Source of the DNA: Mycobacterium sp. SMC-8
Lineage (GTDB): Bacteria > Actinomycetota > Actinomycetes > Mycobacteriales > Mycobacteriaceae
Length of the DNA stretch: 64,000 nt
Direction: 5' to 3'
Assembly (NCBI RefSeq): GCF_025263565.1
Contig: NZ_CP079865.1
Coordinates: 868,001 to 932,000, forward strand
Positions 7,521 through 17,595 of the stretch are shown here, piece after piece. The notes beneath the pieces were generated by a model. It saw only the letters and a program-made list of their open reading frames with translations, was not told the origin of the DNA and made no database searches. Within the stretch, counting starts at the first letter, position 1. Every line of letters starts with the position of its first letter. The position numbers and the translations under genes are program-made.

Positions 7521-8299
7521 GTCATGACGCCGGCCATGATGCGGTCGGACCACAGCAGTCCGGCGCAGACGAACGTCGTCCCGATCACCAGCAGCCATCC
7601 GCCCGCGCCGGACAACAGGAAGCTCAACGGATCTGCGCCGACCGCATGCCCGAGCAACACGCCGAGCACCGGCAGCCCGGCCAGGATCGCCGCGGTGGCG
7701 CGCGCACCGGCCAGACCGGCTTCGACACGGCCGCGGAAGCGCTCACGCTCGACGACATCGCATTGCGCGGCCTGAATCAGGCTGGCCACCGCCAATCCCT
7801 GCGCCTGCGCAAGACGCCAACACACCCCGAGCCGTTCCCAGTACCCCGGCAGCAGGGACCGGCGGCCCTCGGCGCGCAGACCTTCGGCGACGTCCGCCCC
7901 GAGCAGGGCTCGGGCCGCGACCGCGCCGAGCGACGTCGCCGTCCGGCCGGTGGACTCCTGCGCCGCGGCGCGCACCGCCGCGACCGGGTGGGCACCGACC
8001 CGCAGCTCGCCGAGGAGCACGTCGAGGGCGGCCTGCAGCGCCGCCGCTTCCGCCGCGCGATCCCGCCGCCGTGCGACGGCCCGGTTGCGCGCCAGCAGTG
8101 TCGCGGCCAGCAGGCCGAGGGACACCGCGGCGGCGGGCGTCGACGACACCGCCACGGCGACGCACACCCCCAACGCGCATACCGGCGCCGGGATACGCAG
8201 CCGGCGGGTCTGCGGCGCCGGGAACAGCACAGCGCGCCGGCGCGAGCGGACCGGCACCAACAGCACCGCCGCGGCCAGGGTCAGCGCGGCGACGGTCAT
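7517..8299 (-). CDS. tadB: Tad secretion inner-membrane protein TadB
   Basis: A 260-residue F-domain protein with several hydrophobic helices near the N-terminus (about residues 3-20 and 38-70) and near the C-terminus (about 200-255). The central cytoplasmic part resembles other TadB proteins (GELRVGAHPVAAVRAAA). Its ATG overlaps the tadA stop as ATGA, so in the intact locus it was translated straight after tadA. The transposon in tadA now separates it from the upstream promoter region, so expression may depend on readthrough or new promoters. Confidence 0.85.
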   Translation of the reverse strand: MTVAALTLAAAVLLVPVRSRRRAVLFPAPQTRRLRIPAPVCALGVCVAVAVSSTPAAAVSLGLLAATLLARNRAVARRRDRAAEAAALQAALDVLLGELRVGAHPVAAVRAAAQESTGRTATSLGAVAARALLGADVAEGLRAEGRRSLLPGYWERLGVCWRLAQAQGLAVASLIQAAQCDVVERERFRGRVEAGLAGARATAAILAGLPVLGVLLGHAVGADPLSFLLSGAGGWLLVIGTTFVCAGLLWSDRIMAGVMT

Positions 8300-8475
8300 G
8301 TCCTGCTCCCCCCCTGCACGAGGTCATGCAGCGTGTCGGCGGCCGGACCGAAACCCGTGTCGGCGTGCCAGCCGGTGAGGACCTCGACGATCCCGTCGTC
8401 TCGGCGCCGCAGCACCCCCACCTCGGCCAGGCGCCGGCGCCCGGTGCGATCACGCGCCACGTGCAGCACCACCCG
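8296..8475 (-). pseudogene. tadA: tadA 3' fragment, cut off by transposon insertion
   Basis: Sixty codons encoding the C-terminal tail of TadA (VVLHVARDRTGRRRLAEVG ... LHDLVQGGSRT, stop). It has no start of its own. Joining it to the 5' fragment at 16597 gives an uninterrupted reading frame (… AAAI then RVVLHVARD …), so the ancestral gene was split cleanly with no target duplication. The ATGA overlap with tadB is preserved. Confidence 0.9.
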
Positions 8476-8481
8476 TCCTCG

Positions 8482-8492
8482 TTATCTGTAAC
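8482..8492 (+). repeat. Left terminal inverted repeat of the transposon
   Basis: TTATCTGTAAC, the exact reverse complement of 16586-16596. A further copy in the right-end orientation lies at 16506-16517. Confidence 0.85.
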
Positions 8493-8845
8493 AAAGGGGG
8501 CCTAGCTGAGCTATCCGACTGTTCAGGACGAGTGTTACATGTGTACCTGGTCTAATCGGGCGCCGGATTGTCCTGCACATGTGTAGGACGCGGGTTGGCG
8601 ATTGCTGTCGCGGAGAACCAGAAGTGCTAGACCCTACGCTGGGGTGGCTTTGTCACTGCCGAGGACTCGACGCCTTGGGCGCCGCTACTCTGTGGCGCTA
8701 TGACTGCGGCCGTACTTCGCCATCGCGCGTGCCCGGAAGCCCGCCGACTGGCACCGCGCGGCACGCGGCGAAATCTATTTCAGATCAGCAACAACCTGCG
8801 ACAGCCACAATGACGCCCGTGGCTGTCAAGTGTCCGATTCGCCGA
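8493..8845. other. Transposon left-end non-coding region
   Basis: About 350 bp without a credible gene. ACATGTGTA occurs twice, at 8537-8545 and 8577-8585. The second copy sits inside a near-palindrome (TCCTGCACATGTGTAGGA, 8571-8588). These are plausible subterminal recombinase-binding sites. I see no coding signal. Confidence 0.5.
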
Positions 8846-9040
8846 TCAGCTCCGGGCGAGTTCGGCGCGGGCTCGGCGCTCGACGAACAGCGGAACGAAG
8901 TCCCGGATCCGGCTGTGTTCAAACTGGGCGTAGGCGCTCTGGACGATGGAGTTGATGCGCTCGGCTGGAATGTCTGCGTAGCTGTCGGCGAGCCGACGCT
9001 CGACTTCTTCAACCATGACGTGCTCATCGACCTCCGGCAT
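8846..9040 (-). CDS. Small three-helix-bundle protein
   Basis: A 64-residue, all-helical acidic/basic protein (EVERRLADSYADIPAERINSIV …). It resembles the small 'three-helix bundle dimerization domain' proteins common in mycobacterial accessory DNA. It starts at an ATG and lies alone on the minus strand near the left end of the transposon. The role is unknown. An overlapping minus-strand frame (8785-9075) is Ser/Thr-rich and is rejected as a shadow. Confidence 0.65.
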   Translation of the reverse strand: MPEVDEHVMVEEVERRLADSYADIPAERINSIVQSAYAQFEHSRIRDFVPLFVERRARAELARS

Positions 9041-9152
9041 GTCGATAGCATGCCTGGGCGGCCAGGTGCCGTCAACCGAGGAATTGACGTCCGTTCACCT
9101 CACATCGTGGCTATCGAACCCGTGAGGTTCGGGAAGTGTGAAGATCTGTTAG

Positions 9153-9371
9153 ATGAGCAACGACGAGTCCGACCTGGCGCAGGCCTTCCGACTGTTGTCA
9201 GCGTTGCACGAGAACATCACTCATACGACGAGGGCGATCGAGAAGTTCGAGCGGCAACGCCGCTTGGGGTCGCCCGCAGGACCGCAAGAGCAACTACTAC
9301 GCCGTGAACTCGCCGAAGCCCACGGGCACATCAACCGCATCTACGAACGGTTCCCCGAGACACGGCGGTAG
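9153..9371 (+). CDS. Small hypothetical protein in transposon cargo
   Basis: A 72-residue, charged, helical protein (SALHENITHTTRAIEKFERQRR …) probably forming a short coiled coil. It starts at an ATG. It has no family that I recognise. It is a single gene between the left-end region and a GC-rich stem-loop. Confidence 0.5.
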   Translation: MSNDESDLAQAFRLLSALHENITHTTRAIEKFERQRRLGSPAGPQEQLLRRELAEAHGHINRIYERFPETRR

Positions 9372-9492
9372 CGCCTTGATGTGAAAGCTCACAGGTCGCG
9401 CCAGACCGACGTCATCAACACCGGTGAGCCAGGCGATGTCCCCTGGGGTTTAGGACTCCGGTCGAATAATCGTCATGCTCATGTTGGGTGGC

Positions 9493-9526
9493 GTCGCGCC
9501 GCGCGAGGGGGGTCGCCCGGCGCGAC
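9493..9526. terminator. GC-rich stem-loop, possible terminator
   Basis: GTCGCGCC at 9493-9500 pairs with GGCGCGAC at 9519-9526 around an 18-base loop. It lies between the small plus-strand gene (9153-9371) and the convergent minus-strand gene (9612-9995), where a two-way terminator would be expected. There is no clear T-run. Confidence 0.35.
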
Positions 9527-9611
9527 ACCGGCCAGATGGCATATCCCGTTTCCGAGGCTAGTCCCGGCGTCCAGGACTTTGCGGTGATGCGCGGTTAACG
9601 AAGGCTAACGA

Positions 9612-9995
9612 CTAACCGGATCGGCGGTACCGGTCTGGCGCTGCGTGCGGCCCAGGACCGGTTCGCTCGCGGGCGGCGGGCGTGTTTTGTGGCGACGCAG
9701 ACGCGATGACCTTGGTGAGAAGGTGTCGCAGGCGTGGTTCGGCGCTCTGTCCGTGGTAGCAGTCCAGCCAGCTGGCGGTGGCGGCCATCAGTTCGTCGTC
9801 GAGAGGAATGTCGTTACATGCGATGGCGGTGATCAGGGCCTCGATCGCGGCGAACGTCTCGCCGATGCCCAGGGTGATGTAGATGCGGTCGGCGTCGATT
9901 CTGCTGAGATACGGGCGCGCGGTGGCGGCCAGCTCCCAGGCCAGGGCGGCATCATCGGGCGCCTTACGCACCGGCGGTTTGCGCGACGTGGACAC
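9612..9995 (-). CDS. Hypothetical protein in transposon cargo
   Basis: A 127-residue soluble protein. The N-terminal part is basic (STSRKPPVRKAPDD), the middle is helical (YITLGIGETFAAIEALITAI), and the C-terminus is a disordered Pro/Arg-rich tail. I recognise no family. It is transcribed away from the long non-coding region at 9996-10538. Confidence 0.5.
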   Translation of the reverse strand: MSTSRKPPVRKAPDDAALAWELAATARPYLSRIDADRIYITLGIGETFAAIEALITAIACNDIPLDDELMAATASWLDCYHGQSAEPRLRHLLTKVIASASPQNTPAARERTGPGPHAAPDRYRRSG

Positions 9996-10282
9996 CCGGC
10001 CCCCCTTTTCCGATGGTCTGGTCTTGTCCGGTGCCTACGGTAGCGGGTGGGCAGGCCTGCCGCGCAGTGTTCGACCCGGCTACCGCGCCGACCAGGCACA
10101 CCACATCCGGCAACGCCGATCTGTTTGCCTGCCATTCACTTTCCGTACCATTCACTGGGCCGCCAGCGGGATCGAGAACGTGGCAGGTCGGCCTCGGCGC
10201 ACGGGTGATCGCATCTGCCGTGCCATCCAACGCGACACACGTGCACCAGCTCCCCGGGCGACGAGACCTCATGCGTCACTAT

Positions 10283-10304
10283 CTTCACTGTGGCCACAGT
10301 GAAG
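10283..10304. promoter_or_regulatory. Perfect 22-bp palindrome, candidate operator
   Basis: CTTCACTGTGG followed directly by its own reverse complement, with no spacer. The core TTCACT also occurs at 10135-10140 and 10151-10156. It lies about 235 bp upstream of the cargo operon. A DNA-binding partner could be the HTH domain of the protease gene. Confidence 0.5.
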
Positions 10305-10436
10305 GAACACACCGTTCGACCCACACAGGCCGACTGCGGCCATTCGAGCCGCCGGGACGCGGAGCGGCATGCGCGCAACGCTCTTCATGGCCAGAAAGCA
10401 GCGCGACACGCATGATTTGTGCAGCTCACAACCATT

Positions 10437-10448
10437 TATACATGTATA
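10437..10448. promoter_or_regulatory. AT-rich palindrome TATACATGTATA near probable promoter
   Basis: A perfect 12-bp palindrome in an otherwise GC-rich setting, 91 bp upstream of the first cargo gene (10539). It contains a -10-like TATACT overlap (10445-10450). It could be an operator overlapping the promoter of the 10539-12567 operon. Confidence 0.4.
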
Positions 10449-10538
10449 CTTGCAGGATGCTAAGCAACGCAGAATTGCTGACCCGACACGCGGCGCGCCT
10501 CCGAAAGGGTGTAGGAAAAACCGTGCAGTATTTCCGCC

Positions 10539-11273
10539 ATGGTGGTTCCGGTGGAGCTGGCGAGACAGCTGGTGGCCTTGCATCGTCTCGCGTTGGCGAG
10601 GCTGCTCGGCGAGATCGGTGTGGCATTCGACGCGTCGCTGGCGCGGTGGTTCGGCGTGTTTCCCGACCCGATGCAGATTCAGGGCGGGACGTTGTGTCAG
10701 GACGTGCGCAGTCATGTGCTGGCGATGAACGGCATCGACGCGCAGAGCGCGAAGGCCCCGACCCCGCCAGCGGCGCCAGAGGGCGCCTCGTGCGGGCCGG
10801 GGTCGACGTTGCGGATGTCGACGGGCCCGAGTTCGTCGGTGCGTATCGGGGATGCGGGGATGGCGTGGGCGCGGGTGCGTCACATCAGCCCGCAGCGGGC
10901 CGCCGATATCGGTGCGCTACCCCCGCAGTCGATGCCGAAGTCCAAGCCGGGCAAGCAGATGGCGCTCGACGCCGGCGAGCCCGAGGATCAGCGGGTGTTC
11001 GGGCCGGCGGGGATCGGCGACGATTACGAGCTGGTTGTGTACTGGTGGGAGACCCCGGGCCGGTTGTCGGTGGGTGGTGGCATCTTGGCGGTGGTCGCCG
11101 ATCTGGATACCAGCGAGGAGCGGATTTTGGGGTTCGAGCCGTTGCCGCTGGCGATTCGGCCGAAGACCGTTGCCGAGCGGCAGATCGTGGCCGAGGACGA
11201 CGAGGACGTGCGCGAGGACTTCGAGCAGTTCTTGCCCAGGAATGCTTCCGAGACCGGGGACGCCGAGGCGTAG
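10539..11273 (+). CDS. Unknown partner gene of the HTH-ImmA/IrrE protease
   Basis: A 244-residue soluble protein with no family that I recognise. The N-terminal 45 residues are helical (ELARQLVALHRLALARLLGEIG). The central region is Pro/Ser-rich. The C-terminal third has a beta-like stretch (DDYELVVYWWETPGRLSVGGG) and ends in an acidic tail (EDDEDVREDFEQF). It lies 49 bp upstream of the protease gene on the same strand, so the two are probably co-transcribed. It could be the substrate, toxin or regulator partner of the protease; that is inference. Confidence 0.6.
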   Translation: MVVPVELARQLVALHRLALARLLGEIGVAFDASLARWFGVFPDPMQIQGGTLCQDVRSHVLAMNGIDAQSAKAPTPPAAPEGASCGPGSTLRMSTGPSSSVRIGDAGMAWARVRHISPQRAADIGALPPQSMPKSKPGKQMALDAGEPEDQRVFGPAGIGDDYELVVYWWETPGRLSVGGGILAVVADLDTSEERILGFEPLPLAIRPKTVAERQIVAEDDEDVREDFEQFLPRNASETGDAEA

Positions 11274-11322
11274 ACGATGAGCTGGTACCGGCCGGGCGCG
11301 TGTGGGGACGAGGTGGTCGGTG

Positions 11323-12567
11323 ATGGCGTCGGTAGAGGTGTTCGGCACACGGGTCCGCCAGGCCCGGGTGTTGCGACGACTGTCAGGCACCGCGGTGATG
11401 GAGCATCTGGGGTGGCGCTCTCCGCGCCAGACGCGGTTGGAGCAGTCCGAGACCGCGGTACTGGAGTCCACCGATTTCGATCGGCTGACAGCGTTGTTGC
11501 GTTTCCCGCCAGCATTTTTCACGACCGCACCGGCATCGCGGGTGACGGCGCGGGATCTGTTGTTCCGGGCGCCCAAGTCCACCACGGTCACCGAGAAGGA
11601 GTACCTGGCGGTGTTCGCCAACGTCGTCGGTGATCTGCTCGGGCAGCTCAATGCGGTGGCCAAGCTGCCCCCGGTGCTGCTGGAGCCGTTGCCGGCGGGC
11701 ACCGATGTGGTGACCGCGGCCGCCCAGGCCCGGCGCTGGCTGGGGGTGGCGCCCGGGGTGCCGATCAAGTCGCTGACCTACGAGCTGGAAGCTGCCGGGG
11801 TGCCGGTGGTGATGCGGATGAAGCACTCACGTTCCACCGGAGTGGTGGACTGGGACACCGATGAGGACGGGCCGGCCGGGTTGTTGACCGAGAAGCATCT
11901 GGGGTGCTCGGCGCGGACCGGGGAGTATCGAGAACGTCCGTTGGTGTTGTTGCGGGCGTTGGATTCTTGGGAGCGCACCCGCTGGACAGTCGCCCACGAG
12001 ATCGGGCACTTGTTGTTGCACCGCTATGGCGATGTCAGCGATGACCAGGAGCGCGAAGCCTCCCGGTTCGCCTCGGAGTTGTTGGCCCCGACCGAAGTGC
12101 TCGCCAAAGAGGTGCCGCCGGTTCCCACGCTCAGCGATCTGGTCGACGCGAAGGTGAAGTGGCGGATTTCGTTGGGGGCGTTGATCATTCACCTTCGCGA
12201 GTCGAAGCTGATCGATGAGGTCCGCGCCGATACGTTGCAGCGCCAGCTCTACACGCGGATCAACTCCGAGACCGGGCACACCTGGGGCAAGACCGAACCG
12301 GGCTGGAATGCCCGCACACCGGAGCGGCCCCGGCTGCTGCGCCGGTGGATGGAGGAATGCTACGGCTCGGTCAGCGTGGAGGCCTTGGCCGCCCACGACC
12401 TGATCTACCCCACAGACTTGTTGGCCGACATCCTCGCCGGCCAGCGCGGCGCCCCCGCGAAAGTTGCCGCGGCCCCGGACACCGTCTCGACGGTGCTCGA
12501 CGAGGAGGCGATCCTGGACCGCGGGGACACGGTGGTGGCGCTGCGCCGGCCCCGCCGGCAGGCCTAA
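11323..12567 (+). CDS. HTH-ImmA/IrrE metallopeptidase fusion
   Basis: A 414-residue protein. The N-terminus (about residues 1-60: FGTRVRQARVLRRLSGTAVMEHLG) looks like an XRE-type DNA-binding domain. The middle carries the zinc-protease motif HEIGHLLLH (about 225-233) with a downstream EASRFASELLAP, the hallmark of the COG2856 ImmA/IrrE family. Known members cleave repressors such as ImmR of ICEBs1 or DdrO of Deinococcus. The ATG at 11323 begins the HTH; an upstream in-frame start at 11302 adds seven residues. In a transposon it may control a cargo regulator or the element itself. Confidence 0.85.
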   Translation: MASVEVFGTRVRQARVLRRLSGTAVMEHLGWRSPRQTRLEQSETAVLESTDFDRLTALLRFPPAFFTTAPASRVTARDLLFRAPKSTTVTEKEYLAVFANVVGDLLGQLNAVAKLPPVLLEPLPAGTDVVTAAAQARRWLGVAPGVPIKSLTYELEAAGVPVVMRMKHSRSTGVVDWDTDEDGPAGLLTEKHLGCSARTGEYRERPLVLLRALDSWERTRWTVAHEIGHLLLHRYGDVSDDQEREASRFASELLAPTEVLAKEVPPVPTLSDLVDAKVKWRISLGALIIHLRESKLIDEVRADTLQRQLYTRINSETGHTWGKTEPGWNARTPERPRLLRRWMEECYGSVSVEALAAHDLIYPTDLLADILAGQRGAPAKVAAAPDTVSTVLDEEAILDRGDTVVALRRPRRQA

Positions 12568-12593
12568 CAGGGAATTGCGGGGGCGGATCGGGG

Positions 12594-13802
12594 ATGGCAC
12601 GGACACAACGGATCGCGCTGACCGGCGCCCCCGACACCTACACCGTGCTGGGCCCCGATCACCTGCCGATCGAGGCAGCCGAGCAATACCTGCAGTTCCT
12701 GCGCGATGACGGGGCCTCACCGAACACGGTGAAGGCGTATGCGGCCGGCCTGGCGGCGTGGTGGACGGTGCTAGAACACACCGGCACCGACTGGCAGGAC
12801 ATCAGTACGAGCCTGTTCGGGCAGTTTCTGGCCTACCTGCGCACCGGGGACCTGCCGGGCACCGCCCGGATCGGCGCACCAGAGGTTTGGCTGGGCCCGG
12901 CGAGCACCCAGCTGCGGGCCGCGGCGGTGCTGGCGTTCTACCGCTACCACGCGGACGCCCATGGGCTGGCCGGCCCGTATCAGCGGCTGTTCACCAGCCG
13001 CGGCAAGCGATCGCGGTCACGATATATCCCGATGCTGGCCGGAGTAGGCGCACGACGCTCCAAGGACCGGCCCATCTACACGGTGCGCAGCGGCAACAAG
13101 TCCGCCACTCCGGTGCTACTACCCGCCCAAGTGGCCGCGATTCTCGACGGCTGCGCCACCCAGGCCGGACAGGACTGGTCGGGGCCGCCCTCAGGGCTGC
13201 GGGACCGGCTGTTGTTCGCGGTGCTCGCCGAGACCGGGATGCGACTGGGTGAAGCGTTGTCGCTGCGCCACCACGATTTTCATATCGGCGCCGGCGGGAC
13301 ACCGTTCATCGACGTGGCCTCCCGACAAGACCATCCGCGCGGGGCCCGCGGCAAGACGCTACTGGCCCGACGCATCTACATCGGTGATGATCTGGAGGCG
13401 CTGTATTCGGCCTACGTGTGGCATCTGGTCGACCAGGGCGCCGATCTGGACGTGCCCGACCTGGACACTCACTTCGTGTTCGTCAATCTCACCCACGGGC
13501 AGCGTTTCCGGGCCATGCGTGCCGAAACGGTCTACGCCAAAATCGATTCGGTGACTAACCGCGCCGGCGGGGTGCTGCCCGATCGGTGGTCACCGCACTG
13601 GCTGCGCCACACCCACGCCACCGCACTGCTGCTCTCCGGAACCCCGCCGCACGTGGTCATGCGCCGCCTGGGCCACGCCGATATCCAGACCACGCTCTCG
13701 ACCTACGGATGGGTCACCGAGGACGCCGAGATGCGCACCCTGGCGCAATGGCGCAGCTACGTCGCTGGCTGGAAAGGGCTGCACCATGACCACACCGACT
13801 GA
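12594..13802 (+). CDS. tnpA: Tn554-type tyrosine recombinase TnpA
   Basis: A 402-residue phage-integrase family enzyme. An N-terminal SAM-like core-binding domain (EAAEQYLQFLRDDGASPNT) is followed by a catalytic domain with the first Arg in ETGMRLGEALSLRH, HxxR in HWLRHTHATALL, LGH, and the nucleophilic Tyr in TTLSTYGWV. It starts 27 bp after the protease gene with a GGGG stretch upstream, and its end overlaps tnpB by 17 bp. With TnpB it would cut and join the element ends. Confidence 0.9.
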   Translation: MARTQRIALTGAPDTYTVLGPDHLPIEAAEQYLQFLRDDGASPNTVKAYAAGLAAWWTVLEHTGTDWQDISTSLFGQFLAYLRTGDLPGTARIGAPEVWLGPASTQLRAAAVLAFYRYHADAHGLAGPYQRLFTSRGKRSRSRYIPMLAGVGARRSKDRPIYTVRSGNKSATPVLLPAQVAAILDGCATQAGQDWSGPPSGLRDRLLFAVLAETGMRLGEALSLRHHDFHIGAGGTPFIDVASRQDHPRGARGKTLLARRIYIGDDLEALYSAYVWHLVDQGADLDVPDLDTHFVFVNLTHGQRFRAMRAETVYAKIDSVTNRAGGVLPDRWSPHWLRHTHATALLLSGTPPHVVMRRLGHADIQTTLSTYGWVTEDAEMRTLAQWRSYVAGWKGLHHDHTD

Positions 13803-16020
13803 CCCGCCCGCACCCACCCTGGCCCCCGCACCCGCTGCGGGATCATGGGCGACCCAGTGGGCCCAAGTCCCTGAAGCGTGGCGCCGGCCGATCTATGCGA
13901 TCTACAGCGCCCCGTGTGATCAGGTGTTTCTGCGCAACCAGTTCTACCTGCAAGCACACCGCGCCGGAGCCACACACGATTTCACCCCCGACGCCCCCGC
14001 CCGATTCGGCGACGAGATCGCCTGGTGGGTCTGGACCTGCTGGGACCAGCAGCTACGCAAGATCGAACCATCCCTGCTGGCCTGGCTGACCCGCACCCTG
14101 CCGGCCGCGATCGCCGAACACCGCACCCGCACCGGAAAGACCCCCGCCAGCATCGCCGACCTGGACCCCAATGCCGTGCTCCGCCAAGCGGTCCTGACCT
14201 TTCAGCGCCGCAACATGCGACTCCCCTCGGCGGGATCGCGGCGCAACATCCGCCACCTCATCGAACACCTGCACCTGTGGGTATCGGTGCGCTGCACCGA
14301 CACCCCGTGGTGGGAACACGACATCTGGGATCTGCGCACCGACCCTCGGATCCCACGCCGCGACCACGAACCCCGCCACGACACCGCCGTGCGGCTGCGC
14401 GATATCGAACCGGCCTGGCTGCGCGAAGGGCTGCGGTTCTGGCTGCGCAGCGCGTTGACCTACGACCTGCTGGTCTGGTCCTCGGCCGCCGACCGGGCCC
14501 GCAACCTGGGCTCGCAGCTGGGCCGGTTCGCCCACGACTACGGCCACCACAGTGATCCGCTGATCAGCACCGATCCCGACCAGCTGCGCACCGTGTTCCT
14601 CGACTATCTCGAGTATCTGCGCTCCCCGGCCGCAGCCACCCAGTCCGACCGCCTTACCGCCGACACCGTGGCCACCCTGCAAGCCCAAACCCAGGCGTTC
14701 TACACGTTCATGCACGACAACGCCGCCGACGCGGCGACCGCGACGGCCAACCCGCGCTGGCGCGACATCACGCTGACCCACACCGTGCTGTGGTCACCGC
14801 TACACGCGCCCAAACAGCGCCGCCGCGAACGCGAACTCACCTGGTATGCCACCGCAGACCTACAGCGCATGCTCACCTACCTCGACGTCCTGGCCGCCCC
14901 CGCCGGGCACAAGGTGGTGCTGACCAAAGCCGACGGCACGATCACCGTCGCCGCCGGCCTCGGTGACCCCCAGGCCGCCCGGATCTGGCTGCTGCAGGCC
15001 CTGACCGGACGCCGAGCCTCGGAGATCTTGATGCTCGACCATGATCCGCTGCAGGCCATCCCGGGCCAGGAACGCCCCACCGACGCCGATCCCGACACGT
15101 TCGTGGCCCGGCTGCGCTACCAGCAGACCAAAGTCGACGACGTCATTCCCACCATCCTCGTCGAGCAGGCCATCGTTGACATCATCACCGAGCAGCAGAG
15201 CTGGCTGAAGGCGACATACCCCGACCTGGCGCCCCGATACCTGTTCCTCGGCGTGAAGAATCAGCACCGCGGCCAGCAACCCCGCTCCTACAACACCTAC
15301 CGCACATCGCTGGCCAAGCTCGACGACTGCCACGATCTCACCGACAGCGCCGGCCGACCACTGCGCTTCACCCAAACCCACCGGTTGCGCCACACCCGGG
15401 CCACCGAACTGCTCAACGATGGCGTTCCGTTCCACGTCGTGCAGCGCTACCTCGGACACAAGAGCCCCGAGATGACCGCCCGCTACGCGGCCACCCTGGC
15501 GGCCACCGCCGAGTCAGAGTTCCTCAAACACAAGAAAATCGGGGCCCACGGCACCGATATCTCCATCAGCCCCAGCGACATTTATGAGATGACGCAGCTC
15601 GGCGCCCGCACCGACCGGATCCTGCCCAACGGGGTCTGCCTGCTGCCGCCGCTCAAACAGTGCGACAAGGGCAATGCCTGTCTGGGCTGCGGTCACTTCG
15701 CCACCGACGCCACCCACCTCGATGAGCTACGCCAGCAACACGCCGCCACCGAAGCGCTGCTGGCCGCCCGCCGCGACCAGTATCGCCGACGAAGTGGACG
15801 CGAACTCGGCGAGGACAACATCTGGGTGATCGAACGCCGCCGCGAGCTGCGCTCGCTCGAAGCGATCATCGAACGCCTGTCGGCCACCGCAGACCAAGAG
15901 GCGGTATCCGGCGCCGGCACAGGGATAGGAAAACGGCTGCCGCTGCTGCAAATCCAGACCCGCGGCGCCCACCAGTCCGCCCTCGATAAAGCTCAGCGAC
16001 CCCGCACCCCGGATCAATGA
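13786..16020 (+). CDS. tnpB: Tn554-type tyrosine recombinase TnpB
   Basis: A 744-residue second recombinase. The catalytic residues are in LTGRRASEIL, HRLRHTRATELL, YLGHKSPEMTARY (nucleophile Tyr). After the catalytic domain comes a cysteine cluster (CLLPPLKQCDKGNACLGCGHF) that probably binds zinc, and then a long basic helical tail. This arrangement, longer than TnpA and with Cys after the Tyr, is typical of TnpB in the Tn554 family. It overlaps tnpA by 17 bp and tnpC by 4 bp. Confidence 0.9.
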   Translation: MTTPTDPPAPTLAPAPAAGSWATQWAQVPEAWRRPIYAIYSAPCDQVFLRNQFYLQAHRAGATHDFTPDAPARFGDEIAWWVWTCWDQQLRKIEPSLLAWLTRTLPAAIAEHRTRTGKTPASIADLDPNAVLRQAVLTFQRRNMRLPSAGSRRNIRHLIEHLHLWVSVRCTDTPWWEHDIWDLRTDPRIPRRDHEPRHDTAVRLRDIEPAWLREGLRFWLRSALTYDLLVWSSAADRARNLGSQLGRFAHDYGHHSDPLISTDPDQLRTVFLDYLEYLRSPAAATQSDRLTADTVATLQAQTQAFYTFMHDNAADAATATANPRWRDITLTHTVLWSPLHAPKQRRRERELTWYATADLQRMLTYLDVLAAPAGHKVVLTKADGTITVAAGLGDPQAARIWLLQALTGRRASEILMLDHDPLQAIPGQERPTDADPDTFVARLRYQQTKVDDVIPTILVEQAIVDIITEQQSWLKATYPDLAPRYLFLGVKNQHRGQQPRSYNTYRTSLAKLDDCHDLTDSAGRPLRFTQTHRLRHTRATELLNDGVPFHVVQRYLGHKSPEMTARYAATLAATAESEFLKHKKIGAHGTDISISPSDIYEMTQLGARTDRILPNGVCLLPPLKQCDKGNACLGCGHFATDATHLDELRQQHAATEALLAARRDQYRRRSGRELGEDNIWVIERRRELRSLEAIIERLSATADQEAVSGAGTGIGKRLPLLQIQTRGAHQSALDKAQRPRTPDQ

Positions 16021-16445
16021 CTGCTGCCCGCTCCACCGCCGGCCTCAGGAAAGCCAGCGCCAAAAGCCGCAACGACGCCCGACGAAAGATCAAGAAGGCG
16101 CTGCGCGAAATGCAGGTCGCCGGAATGGACATCAACCCCAATGCAGTCGCCCGCCACGCAGGGGTCGCCCGCAAAACGATCTACAACCACCGTGACCTCT
16201 ACGACCAAATCCGCGCCGCCTCCGCCACACCACGACCAAAGATCGCCGCCAGCGAATCCGAGGCGCCCACCCGCGGATCCTCGGTGGATGCAGCTCTGCG
16301 TCAACAACTGAGGACCCAGAAGCGCCAATACGACAACGACATCGCCGCTCTCAAAGCCGAAATCAAAGAACTCAACCAGCAGCTCGCGGCCGCCCACGGC
16401 GAGATCCACCGCCTACGCGGCACTGGCAACGCCAACAACAGCTGA
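16017..16445 (+). CDS. tnpC: Tn554-type TnpC accessory protein
   Basis: A 142-residue protein. A basic N-terminus and helix-turn-helix (INPNAVARHAGVARKTIYNHRDLYDQI) are followed by a C-terminal coiled coil (LRTQKRQYDNDIAALKAEIKEL). This matches the DUF6262/TnpC family that sets orientation and efficiency of Tn554 transposition. It starts at an ATGA overlap with tnpB and ends 151 bp before the right end of the element. Confidence 0.85.
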   Translation: MTAARSTAGLRKASAKSRNDARRKIKKALREMQVAGMDINPNAVARHAGVARKTIYNHRDLYDQIRAASATPRPKIAASESEAPTRGSSVDAALRQQLRTQKRQYDNDIAALKAEIKELNQQLAAAHGEIHRLRGTGNANNS

Positions 16446-16505
16446 TCGAGCCACACCATCCACTCGCACAGCGGCCCGCCACAGCGCCCCCACGCCGGTT
16501 GCACC

Positions 16506-16517
16506 GTTACAGATAAC
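16506..16517 (+). repeat. Internal copy of the transposon terminal repeat
   Basis: GTTACAGATAAC, 80 bp inside the right end, in the same orientation as the right terminal repeat and matching the left end to the twelfth base. The tadA readthrough frame stops within it (TAA, minus strand 16507-16509). Confidence 0.7.
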
Positions 16518-16585
16518 ACTGTGTTCCTCGTTGATTCCGCACCCTCAAACCAAGGGCGGTCACTGTCTTACACACAGCGATTCCC

Positions 16586-16596
16586 GTTACAGATAA
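16586..16596 (-). repeat. Right terminal inverted repeat of the transposon
   Basis: GTTACAGATAA, the exact inverse of 8482-8492. The next base (16597) resumes tadA coding sequence. Confidence 0.85.
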
Positions 16597-17595
16597 GATA
16601 GCCGCGGCGAGCTGGCTGTGCAGCGCGGCGCGGTCCAGACCGCCGAGGGCCGCCAGAGCCTCGAACCGGGCCGGCACCTCGGCGGGATTGTTCGCGTGTA
16701 CGGTCCCGGCGCCGCCGTCATGGCCGGTGTTCAGGGCCGTCAGCAGGTCCACCACTTCGGCTCCACGTACCTCGCCGACGACGATGCGGTCGGGTCGCAT
16801 CCGCAACGCCTGCCGGACGAGGTCACGCACGGTGACCTCACCGGCGCCCTCGACGTTCGCGCACCGCGCCACCAGTTTGACCAGATGGGGGTGCGCGGGC
16901 GCGAGCTCGGCGGCGTCCTCGACGCAGACGATGCGCTCCCGGCCCGGTACCGCGGCGAGCAGCGCCGCGAGCAAGGTGGTCTTGCCGGCACCCGTACCGC
17001 CGGAGATCACGAACGCCAGCCGCGCGCCGATCACGCCGCGCAGCAGCTCGGCCGCCTCTGGGCCGACCGCGCCCGCGGCGGCCAGCGCGTCGAGGTTCTG
17101 ATTGGCCGGCCGCAGCACGCGCAGTGACAGGCAGGTGCCGCCGGCGGCGACCGGCGGCAAGACCGCGTGCAGCCGGACGTTGAGCGCGGCCCCCGGCTGT
17201 GCGGCGCCCAGTCCGCTCAGATTCCCGTCCACCCACGGTCGGGCTTCGTCGAGTCGGCGGCCGGCCGCCAGCGCCAGCCGCTGCGCGAGCCGGCGCACCG
17301 CCGCGTCGTCGGCGAACCGCAGATCGGTCCGTCGTAAGCCGGTGCCATCGTCGACCCACACCGCGTCGGGTGCGGTCACGAGCACATCCGTGACGCCGGG
17401 TGCCGACAGCAGCGGATCGAGGATGCCCGCGCCGAGCAGTTCGGTCTGAAGTTGGCGAAGGTTGGTCAGCACTTCGGCGTCGCCGAGGACACCGCCGGAC
17501 TCGGCGCGGATCGCGGCGGCGACCACGCTGGGCCGAAGCGGGGACGACTGCGCGGCCAGCCGCTCCCGCACCCGGTCGATCAGCGGGGCGCTCAT
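16597..17595 (-). pseudogene. tadA: tadA 5' fragment (Tad secretion ATPase), truncated by transposon
   Basis: Encodes the first 333 of 392 residues of the CpaF/TadA ATPase that powers Flp pilus assembly. Visible are Walker A (SGGTGAGKTTLL, near residue 185), a Walker B-type region (RIVCVEDAAELAPAHPH), RMRPDRIVVGEVRGAE, and the His box in LNTGHDGGAGTVHANNP. The ATG at 17595 overlaps the ssd stop. Past 16597 the frame runs 29 codons into the transposon and stops at 16507, replacing the last 59 native residues with foreign sequence. The core ATPase motifs survive, but the C-terminal domain is lost, so the pilus is probably non-functional. Confidence 0.9.

What the first reader, a model, noticed from the sequence alone, without database searches (positions are those of the whole stretch)
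8476..16596. Tn554-type transposon precisely splits tadA; both ends can be read
Deleting 8476-16596 joins the two tadA pieces in frame (999 + 180 bp = 393 codons including stop) with no duplication. The ends carry an 11-bp inverted repeat (TTATCTGTAAC) and the module is TnpA-TnpB-TnpC. The left end carries six extra bases (TCCTCG) outside the repeat, as expected if the element brought a core from its previous site. Tn554-family elements with this cargo have, to my knowledge, not been described in a mycobacterial Tad locus.
Basis: partly seen in the sequence, partly recalled or inferred. Interest (0 to 1): 0.8.

Follow-up and report, generated by a model that had tools for sequence, protein, structure and literature searches.

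The report
Tn554-like transposon homing into tadA
A mobile DNA element has cut a pilus-motor gene of a mycobacterium in two, and relatives show that a whole family of such elements keeps landing on exactly this spot, each carrying a six-letter scrap of DNA from the place where it sat before.

Summary
Confirmed and extended. Window 8476-16596 is a complete Tn554-like transposon (tnpABC) in the Tad ATPase gene tadA. TTATCTGTAAC occurs at 8482(+), 16506(-) and 16586(-), expected 0.00. Uninterrupted tadA of relatives shows clean insertion without target duplication.

New here: (1) tadA is a recurrent, one-orientation attachment site: at least 20 of 346 searched genomes of the genus are occupied at the same codon, plus Gordonia, Tsukamurella and Speluncibacter loci. 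(2) The 6 bp outside the left end stamp the previous site: 22 different 6-mers in 24 tadA copies, tadA-like in 1 of 24, but in 7 of 10 copies outside tadA (Fisher p=1.6e-4). Two sets of near-identical elements at different sites show reciprocal cores. (3) The stamp lies upstream of tnpA; passages on Tn554/SEs put it at the far end, so the bias looks mirrored. (4) The ImmA/IrrE gene is no cargo: it precedes tnpA in 46 of 48 loci. (5) A nested clade targets a decarboxylase gene, a distant tier IstB genes.

The actinobacterial Tn554-like class itself is published (PMC3414803). Real; new variant of a known kind. Circle formation and donor fate are inferred.

The parts
16597..17595 (-). N-terminal part of tadA (Tad/T2SSE-type ATPase), up to the insertion codon
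   Evidence: PF00437 T2SSE E 6.2e-52; intact homologues in relatives
8296..8475 (-). C-terminal part of tadA (59 codons and stop)
   Evidence: open frame; resembles the C end of uninterrupted tadA in relatives
8476..8481 (+). left core TCCTCG: 6 bp judged to come from the previous insertion site
   Evidence: varies between copies at the same tadA codon
8482..8492 (+). left terminal repeat TTATCTGTAAC
   Evidence: TTATC[AT]G at the left end of tadA copies
8536..8545 (.). TACATGTGTA, variant of a TACATGTA-type palindrome near the left end; possible regulator or recombinase site (inferred)
9612..9995 (-). small cargo ORF of unknown function
   Evidence: 83% identical in the sister element L092
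10437..10448 (.). TATACATGTATA palindrome before the accessory genes; possible operator (inferred)
10539..11273 (+). accessory gene of a family without significant Pfam match, upstream of the ImmA/IrrE gene
   Evidence: no significant Pfam hit; 45 homologous proteins, 44 without a precomputed Pfam domain; no significant fold match
11302..12567 (+). HTH plus ImmA/IrrE (Peptidase_M78) protein, probable regulator of the element
   Evidence: PF06114 E 8.4e-12 (scanned from 11320); present in 46 of 48 loci of the >=60% tier
12594..13802 (+). tnpA, tyrosine recombinase (402 aa)
   Evidence: PF00589; 28% identity to TnpA of a Tn558-like element, E 6e-40
13786..16020 (+). tnpB, long tyrosine recombinase (744 aa)
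   Evidence: PF00589; 32% identity over 285 aa to TnpB of a Tn558-like element, E 1e-31
16017..16445 (+). tnpC-like small protein (142 aa), DUF6262/HTH-like
   Evidence: PF19776 hit below its cut-off; some homologues named DUF6262 or transposase
16506..16516 (-). subterminal copy of the terminal repeat, 80 bp inside the right end
16586..16596 (-). right terminal repeat
16597..16602 (+). target core GATAGC (tadA's own 6 bp, Ala-Ile codons on the minus strand), kept at the right junction
   Evidence: 87 empty tadA sites have Ala-Val, Ala-Ile or Ala-Cys here

Best explanation
A complete, probably functional Tn554-like site-specific transposon of the actinobacterial long-TnpB class. Its recombinases recognise a conserved stretch of tadA and insert, in one orientation, at the left edge of a 6-bp core. 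Shown by comparison: the site, the orientation, the clean junctions, and (in the reciprocal cases) that the 6 bp outside the left end equal the core of another site where a near-identical element sits, while the target's own 6 bp stay at the right end. Inferred: TnpA and TnpB with TnpC join the two ends around the 6 bp next to the right end, giving a circle (CAGATAA-core-TTATCTG); on insertion that core goes to the left end. The element thus moves between tadA of mycobacterial chromosomes and secondary sites, several of them on plasmids, which probably carry it between species. The HTH-ImmA/IrrE protein probably represses the element and releases it under stress (inferred from what is recalled of the family).
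For: Recurrence at the same tadA codon and orientation. Left cores: 1 of 24 tadA copies tadA-type against 7 of 10 non-tadA copies; background of such 6-mers 1.34%. Reciprocal cores: L102 in tadA (left GACCAG, right GACCGC) and L103 outside (left GACCGC, right GACCAG), 99.97% over 14,062 bp; L051 in tadA (left CGACGT, right CACGGC) and L110 outside (left CACGGC, right CGACGT), 99.96-100% in four aligned segments with indels between. L077 in tadA (left CGACGT) is 99.98% identical to L051 in the element but 81% in the flank, so it is a separate arrival with the same stamp; L104/L105 likewise (99.99% against 73%, both CACGCC). Empty homologues of two secondary sites are contiguous across the core. 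The window's element is on an M. abscessus plasmid. A nested clade repeats the pattern at a decarboxylase gene, with core CTGCTC on the right and at the left of two non-primary copies.
Against: 3 of 10 non-tadA copies (L151, L098, L100) and 3 of 5 non-primary copies of the decarboxylase clade (p=0.18 for that clade) have left cores matching neither primary site, so secondary-to-secondary hops must be assumed. Six close empty relatives of the L103 site read GAGCAG where L103 and L102 have GACCAG, a seventh, more distant one reads CAGCAG, and the empty relative of the L110 site reads CGATGT against CGACGT: taken here for natural variation. One tadA copy (L199, Gordonia) has a tadA-type left core. 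No donor is known for most left cores, the window's TCCTCG included. Movement itself and a circle were not observed.
Confidence: 0.9

Rival explanations
1. Same element, moving by Tn916-like cut-and-paste: excision leaves the left 6 bp behind and restores tadA's length with two changed residues.
For: Tyrosine recombinases and coupling-type 6-bp cores are shared with that class (recalled). tadA is empty in G315 and G362, whose secondary copies bear tadA-type left cores.
Against: None of 87 empty tadA sites shows a foreign 6-mer at the core; they code Ala-Val/Ile/Cys. G362's own core (GATGGC) differs from its copy's left core (GACCGC), which suggests that copy came from another genome. Most sampled genomes may never have been occupied, so this is weak.
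Confidence: 0.25
2. The variable left 6 bp are made by error-prone joining or drift and hold no memory of a donor.
For: They differ in almost every copy (22 kinds in 24).
Against: Reciprocal cores, shared cores in separate arrivals and the 7-of-10 enrichment of tadA-type cores outside tadA (P about 9e-12 on background frequency).
Confidence: 0.03
3. The tadA insertion is a regulated on/off switch of the Tad system rather than plain parasitism.
For: Exact, in-frame, single-orientation site in a gene with a match in 87 of 90 genomes.
Against: No sign of precise restoration; cargo differs between elements; a nested clade uses a decarboxylase gene and distant kin IstB genes.
Confidence: 0.05

Closest known systems
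Actinobacterial Tn554-related transposons (Van Houdt et al. 2012, PMC3414803; section 10 and passages read)
   Same: One ordinary and one long tyrosine recombinase plus a TnpC-like gene, in mycobacterial chromosomes and plasmids.
   Different: The section read gives no attachment gene, ends, cores or ImmA/IrrE partner; the tadA site and the core itinerary are added here.
Tn554/Tn558/Tn6188 of Bacillota (PMC3788773, PMC9616846, PMC12486829; passages seen)
   Same: tnpABC, strong preference for one conserved gene (radC for Tn554, Tn558, Tn6188), 6 or 7 bp at junctions, copies on plasmids, donor att brought along.
   Different: Target is tadA; footprint at the tnpA-upstream end instead of the right end; extra HTH-ImmA/IrrE and upstream genes; proteins 28-32% identical where alignable.
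[quoted passage not shown] passages seen)
   Same: Two tyrosine recombinases, a small partner, inverted ends, 6-bp footprint from the donor flank.
   Different: No Tfp counterpart found here; in SEs the target's 6 bp lie at the intA-proximal end and the footprint at the far end, here the reverse; hosts differ.

Membership tests
Tn554-related transposons | tnpA and tnpB tyrosine recombinases in tandem | tested here: met
Tn554-related transposons | TnpC partner | tested here: inconclusive
   small HTH-like, DUF6262-like protein in the right place; Pfam hit below cut-off; not compared with Tn554 TnpC
Tn554-related transposons | no target duplication | tested here: met
   left TCCTCG and right GATAGC differ; empty sites contiguous
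Tn554-related transposons | one strongly preferred conserved gene | tested here: met
   tadA codon, one orientation; radC itself is not the target
Tn554-related transposons | core carried over from the donor site | tested here: met
Tn554-related transposons | footprint at the right (tnpA-distal) end | tested here: not met
   footprint at the tnpA-upstream end in the tadA and decarboxylase clades; the rule is taken from passages of PMC10214605 and PMC12486829, not from a Tn554 sequence analysed here
SE elements | Tfp gene between the two recombinase genes | tested here: not met
   tnpA and tnpB overlap, no gene between them
SE elements | circles without empty donor site | not testable with these tools
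   needs DNA from living strains
RIT elements | three tyrosine recombinases | tested here: not met
   third gene is 142 aa without integrase hit
Integrative conjugative elements | own conjugation genes | tested here: not met
   none among the 6 element proteins scanned; smaller ORFs were not scanned

The most novel reading that the evidence does not exclude
A family of Tn554-like elements across Mycobacteriales uses tadA as its chromosomal home and plasmids as vehicles, alternating between them, with strand bias mirrored relative to Tn554 and SEs; the 6-bp left core is a readable itinerary that names the previous site and can trace which plasmids carried genes between mycobacterial species.
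Probability: 0.6. Interest if true: 0.75.

Novelty: new variant of a known kind. Interest (0 to 1): 0.62.

Why it matters
It gives an attachment site to a published but little characterised class of actinobacterial transposons, and indicates from natural genomes that the donor-core rule holds outside Bacillota and Gammaproteobacteria. Each copy's left 6 bp point back to the previous site, so routes of spread can be tested from sequence alone. The mirrored end is a direct handle on which recombinase sets the strand bias. It also explains naturally split tadA genes in mycobacterial genomes.

Tried and rejected
Viral contigs gave no relative and phages only two weak Listeria records, so no support for phage origin. 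A plasmid search with the L110 flank found nothing. Fold prediction of the upstream gene gave a fair model (mean pLDDT 79.6) but no match at E<=0.001 in PDB or viral libraries. PADLOC hits of the HTH-ImmA/IrrE protein were not taken as evidence of defence, since the family is broad. An ORF listing of the upstream gene in other loci probably mixed reading frames and was not used. Cores of the IstB tier were not resolved. I first thought that copies sharing a left core (L051/L077, L104/L105) might be inherited; speaks against it.

Left out of counts: rows L236 (masked), L247 (cut by contig end) and L276 (spurious) from the tadA cores; copies with masked flanks (L058/L172; L070 at the right) or cut at contig ends (for example L053, L063, L091, L092, L106) and copies whose left end was not found (for example L097, L099, L198) from the left-core counts. 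L064, L074 and L076, relatives of the decarboxylase clade with other left cores, were not in the 5 non-primary copies. Loci of one genome found twice were counted once.
Full report
WHAT IS THERE. The window's 8476-16596 holds a complete Tn554-like element inside a Tad-type ATPase gene on the minus strand. TTATCTGTAAC stands at the left end (8482) and twice, inverted, at the right (16506 and 16586); shuffles of the window give 0.00 matches. TnpA (402 aa) and TnpB (744 aa) carry integrase domains, TnpC is a small HTH-like protein. Six bases, TCCTCG, lie between the left repeat and the C-terminal piece of tadA; tadA's own 6 bp, GATAGC, lie at the right.

EMPTY SITES. A tadA-type match was found in 39 of 41 genomes in one search (outside the genus some are paralogues) and in 87 of 90 in three others, mostly one per genome of the genus. 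In 18 of 20 loci first read, tadA runs through with the predicted spacing; the other 2 have an insertion at the same codon. In 107 rows surveyed, these 20 included, 87 are empty, 17 occupied, 3 unusable; the 87 empty cores code Ala-Val (71), Ala-Ile (12) or Ala-Cys (4). The genomes were chosen because they carry elements, those largely because they lack full-length ones, so 17 of 107 is no frequency.

TADA IS A RECURRENT ATTACHMENT SITE. A TnpB search of 346 genomes of the genus found a match in 167, most of them weak or distant. I fetched flanks for 60 of the matches, 48 of the tier with 60-100% identity (fragments included) and 12 of a tier near 35-42%, and extended 40. At least 20 of the 346 genomes have tadA occupied at this codon by elements of the upper tier; the remaining genomes were not all checked. 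A scan of named genomes (66 loci, of which 9 are short Bacteroidales matches) adds Speluncibacter, Gordonia and Tsukamurella copies in tadA. In the 24 tadA copies with a readable left end, that end faces tadA's C-terminal side.

THE LEFT CORE IS A MEMORY. Those 24 copies have 22 different left 6-mers, 1 of them tadA-type (L199). Of 10 copies outside tadA in the same part of the tree, 7 have tadA-type left cores (Fisher p=1.6e-4; background 1.34%). Two cases are reciprocal. L102 (in tadA; left GACCAG, right GACCGC) and L103 (Mycolicibacterium pyrenivorans, named; left GACCGC, right GACCAG) carry elements 99.97% identical. L103's site is a regulator-like gene; the flank is found on 2 plasmid records, both typed mobilizable. 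Six close empty relatives run contiguously across the site with core GAGCAG, one base off; a more distant one reads CAGCAG; there is a length difference of about 88 bp further upstream. G362's own tadA core is GATGGC, which suggests this copy came from another genome. L051 (in tadA, left CGACGT, right CACGGC) matches L110 (outside tadA, left CACGGC, right CGACGT) at 99.96-100% in four segments, with indels between; the empty relative of L110's site reads CGATGT. L077, in tadA of another species, also has CGACGT: its element is 99.98% identical to L051's and its flank 81%, so the two are separate arrivals with the same stamp; L104 and L105 (both CACGCC) show 99.99% against 73%. In Mycobacterium dioxanotrophicus the plasmid copy's left core CACGGC equals the core of its own occupied tadA, though the two elements are only 98.8% identical. 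Three of the ten (L151, L098, L100) do not fit a direct tadA origin.

POLARITY. The target's own 6 bp stay at the right end (downstream of tnpC) and the foreign 6 bp sit at the left end (upstream of tnpA), in the tadA and the decarboxylase clades. The SE paper states the opposite for SEs (target 6 bp at the intA-proximal end) and says that Tn554-related elements also copy 6 bp from the left of the donor to the right of the new site (PMC10214605, passages); the Tn552-II paper places the brought-in att at the right (PMC12486829, passages). I did not re-derive Tn554's polarity from sequence.

MODULE AND CARGO. The HTH-ImmA/IrrE gene lies upstream of tnpA in 46 of 48 loci of the upper tier; the 2 without it (L053, L091) are cut at contig ends; none of the 12 lower-tier loci has it. 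A gene family without significant Pfam match precedes it in the window and in part of the tier. A TACATGTA-type palindrome was found between the left end and the first gene in 11 of 15 elements listed, and again before the accessory genes in the window and L095 (for L093 the left end was set wrongly). Of 7 cargo proteins scanned, 4 (from 4 elements) are MMPL transporters, the others a TetR regulator, a thioesterase and a sulfatase.

OTHER TARGETS. A clade nested in the tadA-using tree (quick method, very long outgroup branch) inserts into an Orn/Lys/Arg decarboxylase gene (PF01276 E 3.8e-15) at core CTGCTC: left CTGCTC in 0 of 6 primary copies and 2 of 5 others (Fisher p=0.18, not significant). 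The lower tier inserts into Walker-A codons of IstB-type genes (7 loci read by eye; PF01695 E 5.5e-45 for the one tested).

WINDOW'S ELEMENT ELSEWHERE. It matches a copy on plasmid NC_021278.1 of Mycobacteroides abscessus subsp. bolletii 50594 at 99.8% over 6,451 bp and 99.7-99.9% over two shorter segments; that copy lacks window 9192-9549 and carries an extra insertion of about 3.4 kb, has left core CGCCAG and right core ACGGAT, and sits in another ImmA/IrrE gene. TnpB is 100% identical in M. canariasense and M. novocastrense contigs.

LITERATURE. The class is published (PMC3414803, section 10 read). Searches: Tn554 with Mycobacterium, 26 papers, 25 listed (three of them opened in part); tadA, transposon, Mycobacterium and Tn554 together, 0 papers; mycobacteri, integrative element, tyrosine recombinase and tad locus, 3 of 4, 13 papers, 12 listed, none that I recognised as describing this (listing). 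Subscription papers are mostly missing from that library, so absence from print is not proven.

Noticed in passing
L082, L083, L085-L087, L089, L090: A distant tier (about 35% TnpB identity) of Tn554-like elements, some about 4 kb, sits in Walker-A codons of IstB-type ATPase genes, with two or three copies in some genomes.
   Followed up: partly
L067-L069, L071, L072, L075: Nested clade inserts at the Glu-Gln codons of a conserved Orn/Lys/Arg decarboxylase motif (SVHKMGAGFEQGS), near the presumed active-site lysine.
   Followed up: partly
L151 15108-18938: On the M. abscessus plasmid a second tnpABC set lies directly downstream of the window-type element, which itself is inserted in an ImmA/IrrE gene probably belonging to that second set.
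   Followed up: partly
L057, L105, L093, L111: MMPL transporter genes recur as cargo in four different tadA elements.
   Followed up: partly
window 8536-8545 and 10437-10448: TACATGTA-type palindromes near the left end and before the accessory operon; possible operator of the HTH-ImmA/IrrE protein.
   Followed up: partly
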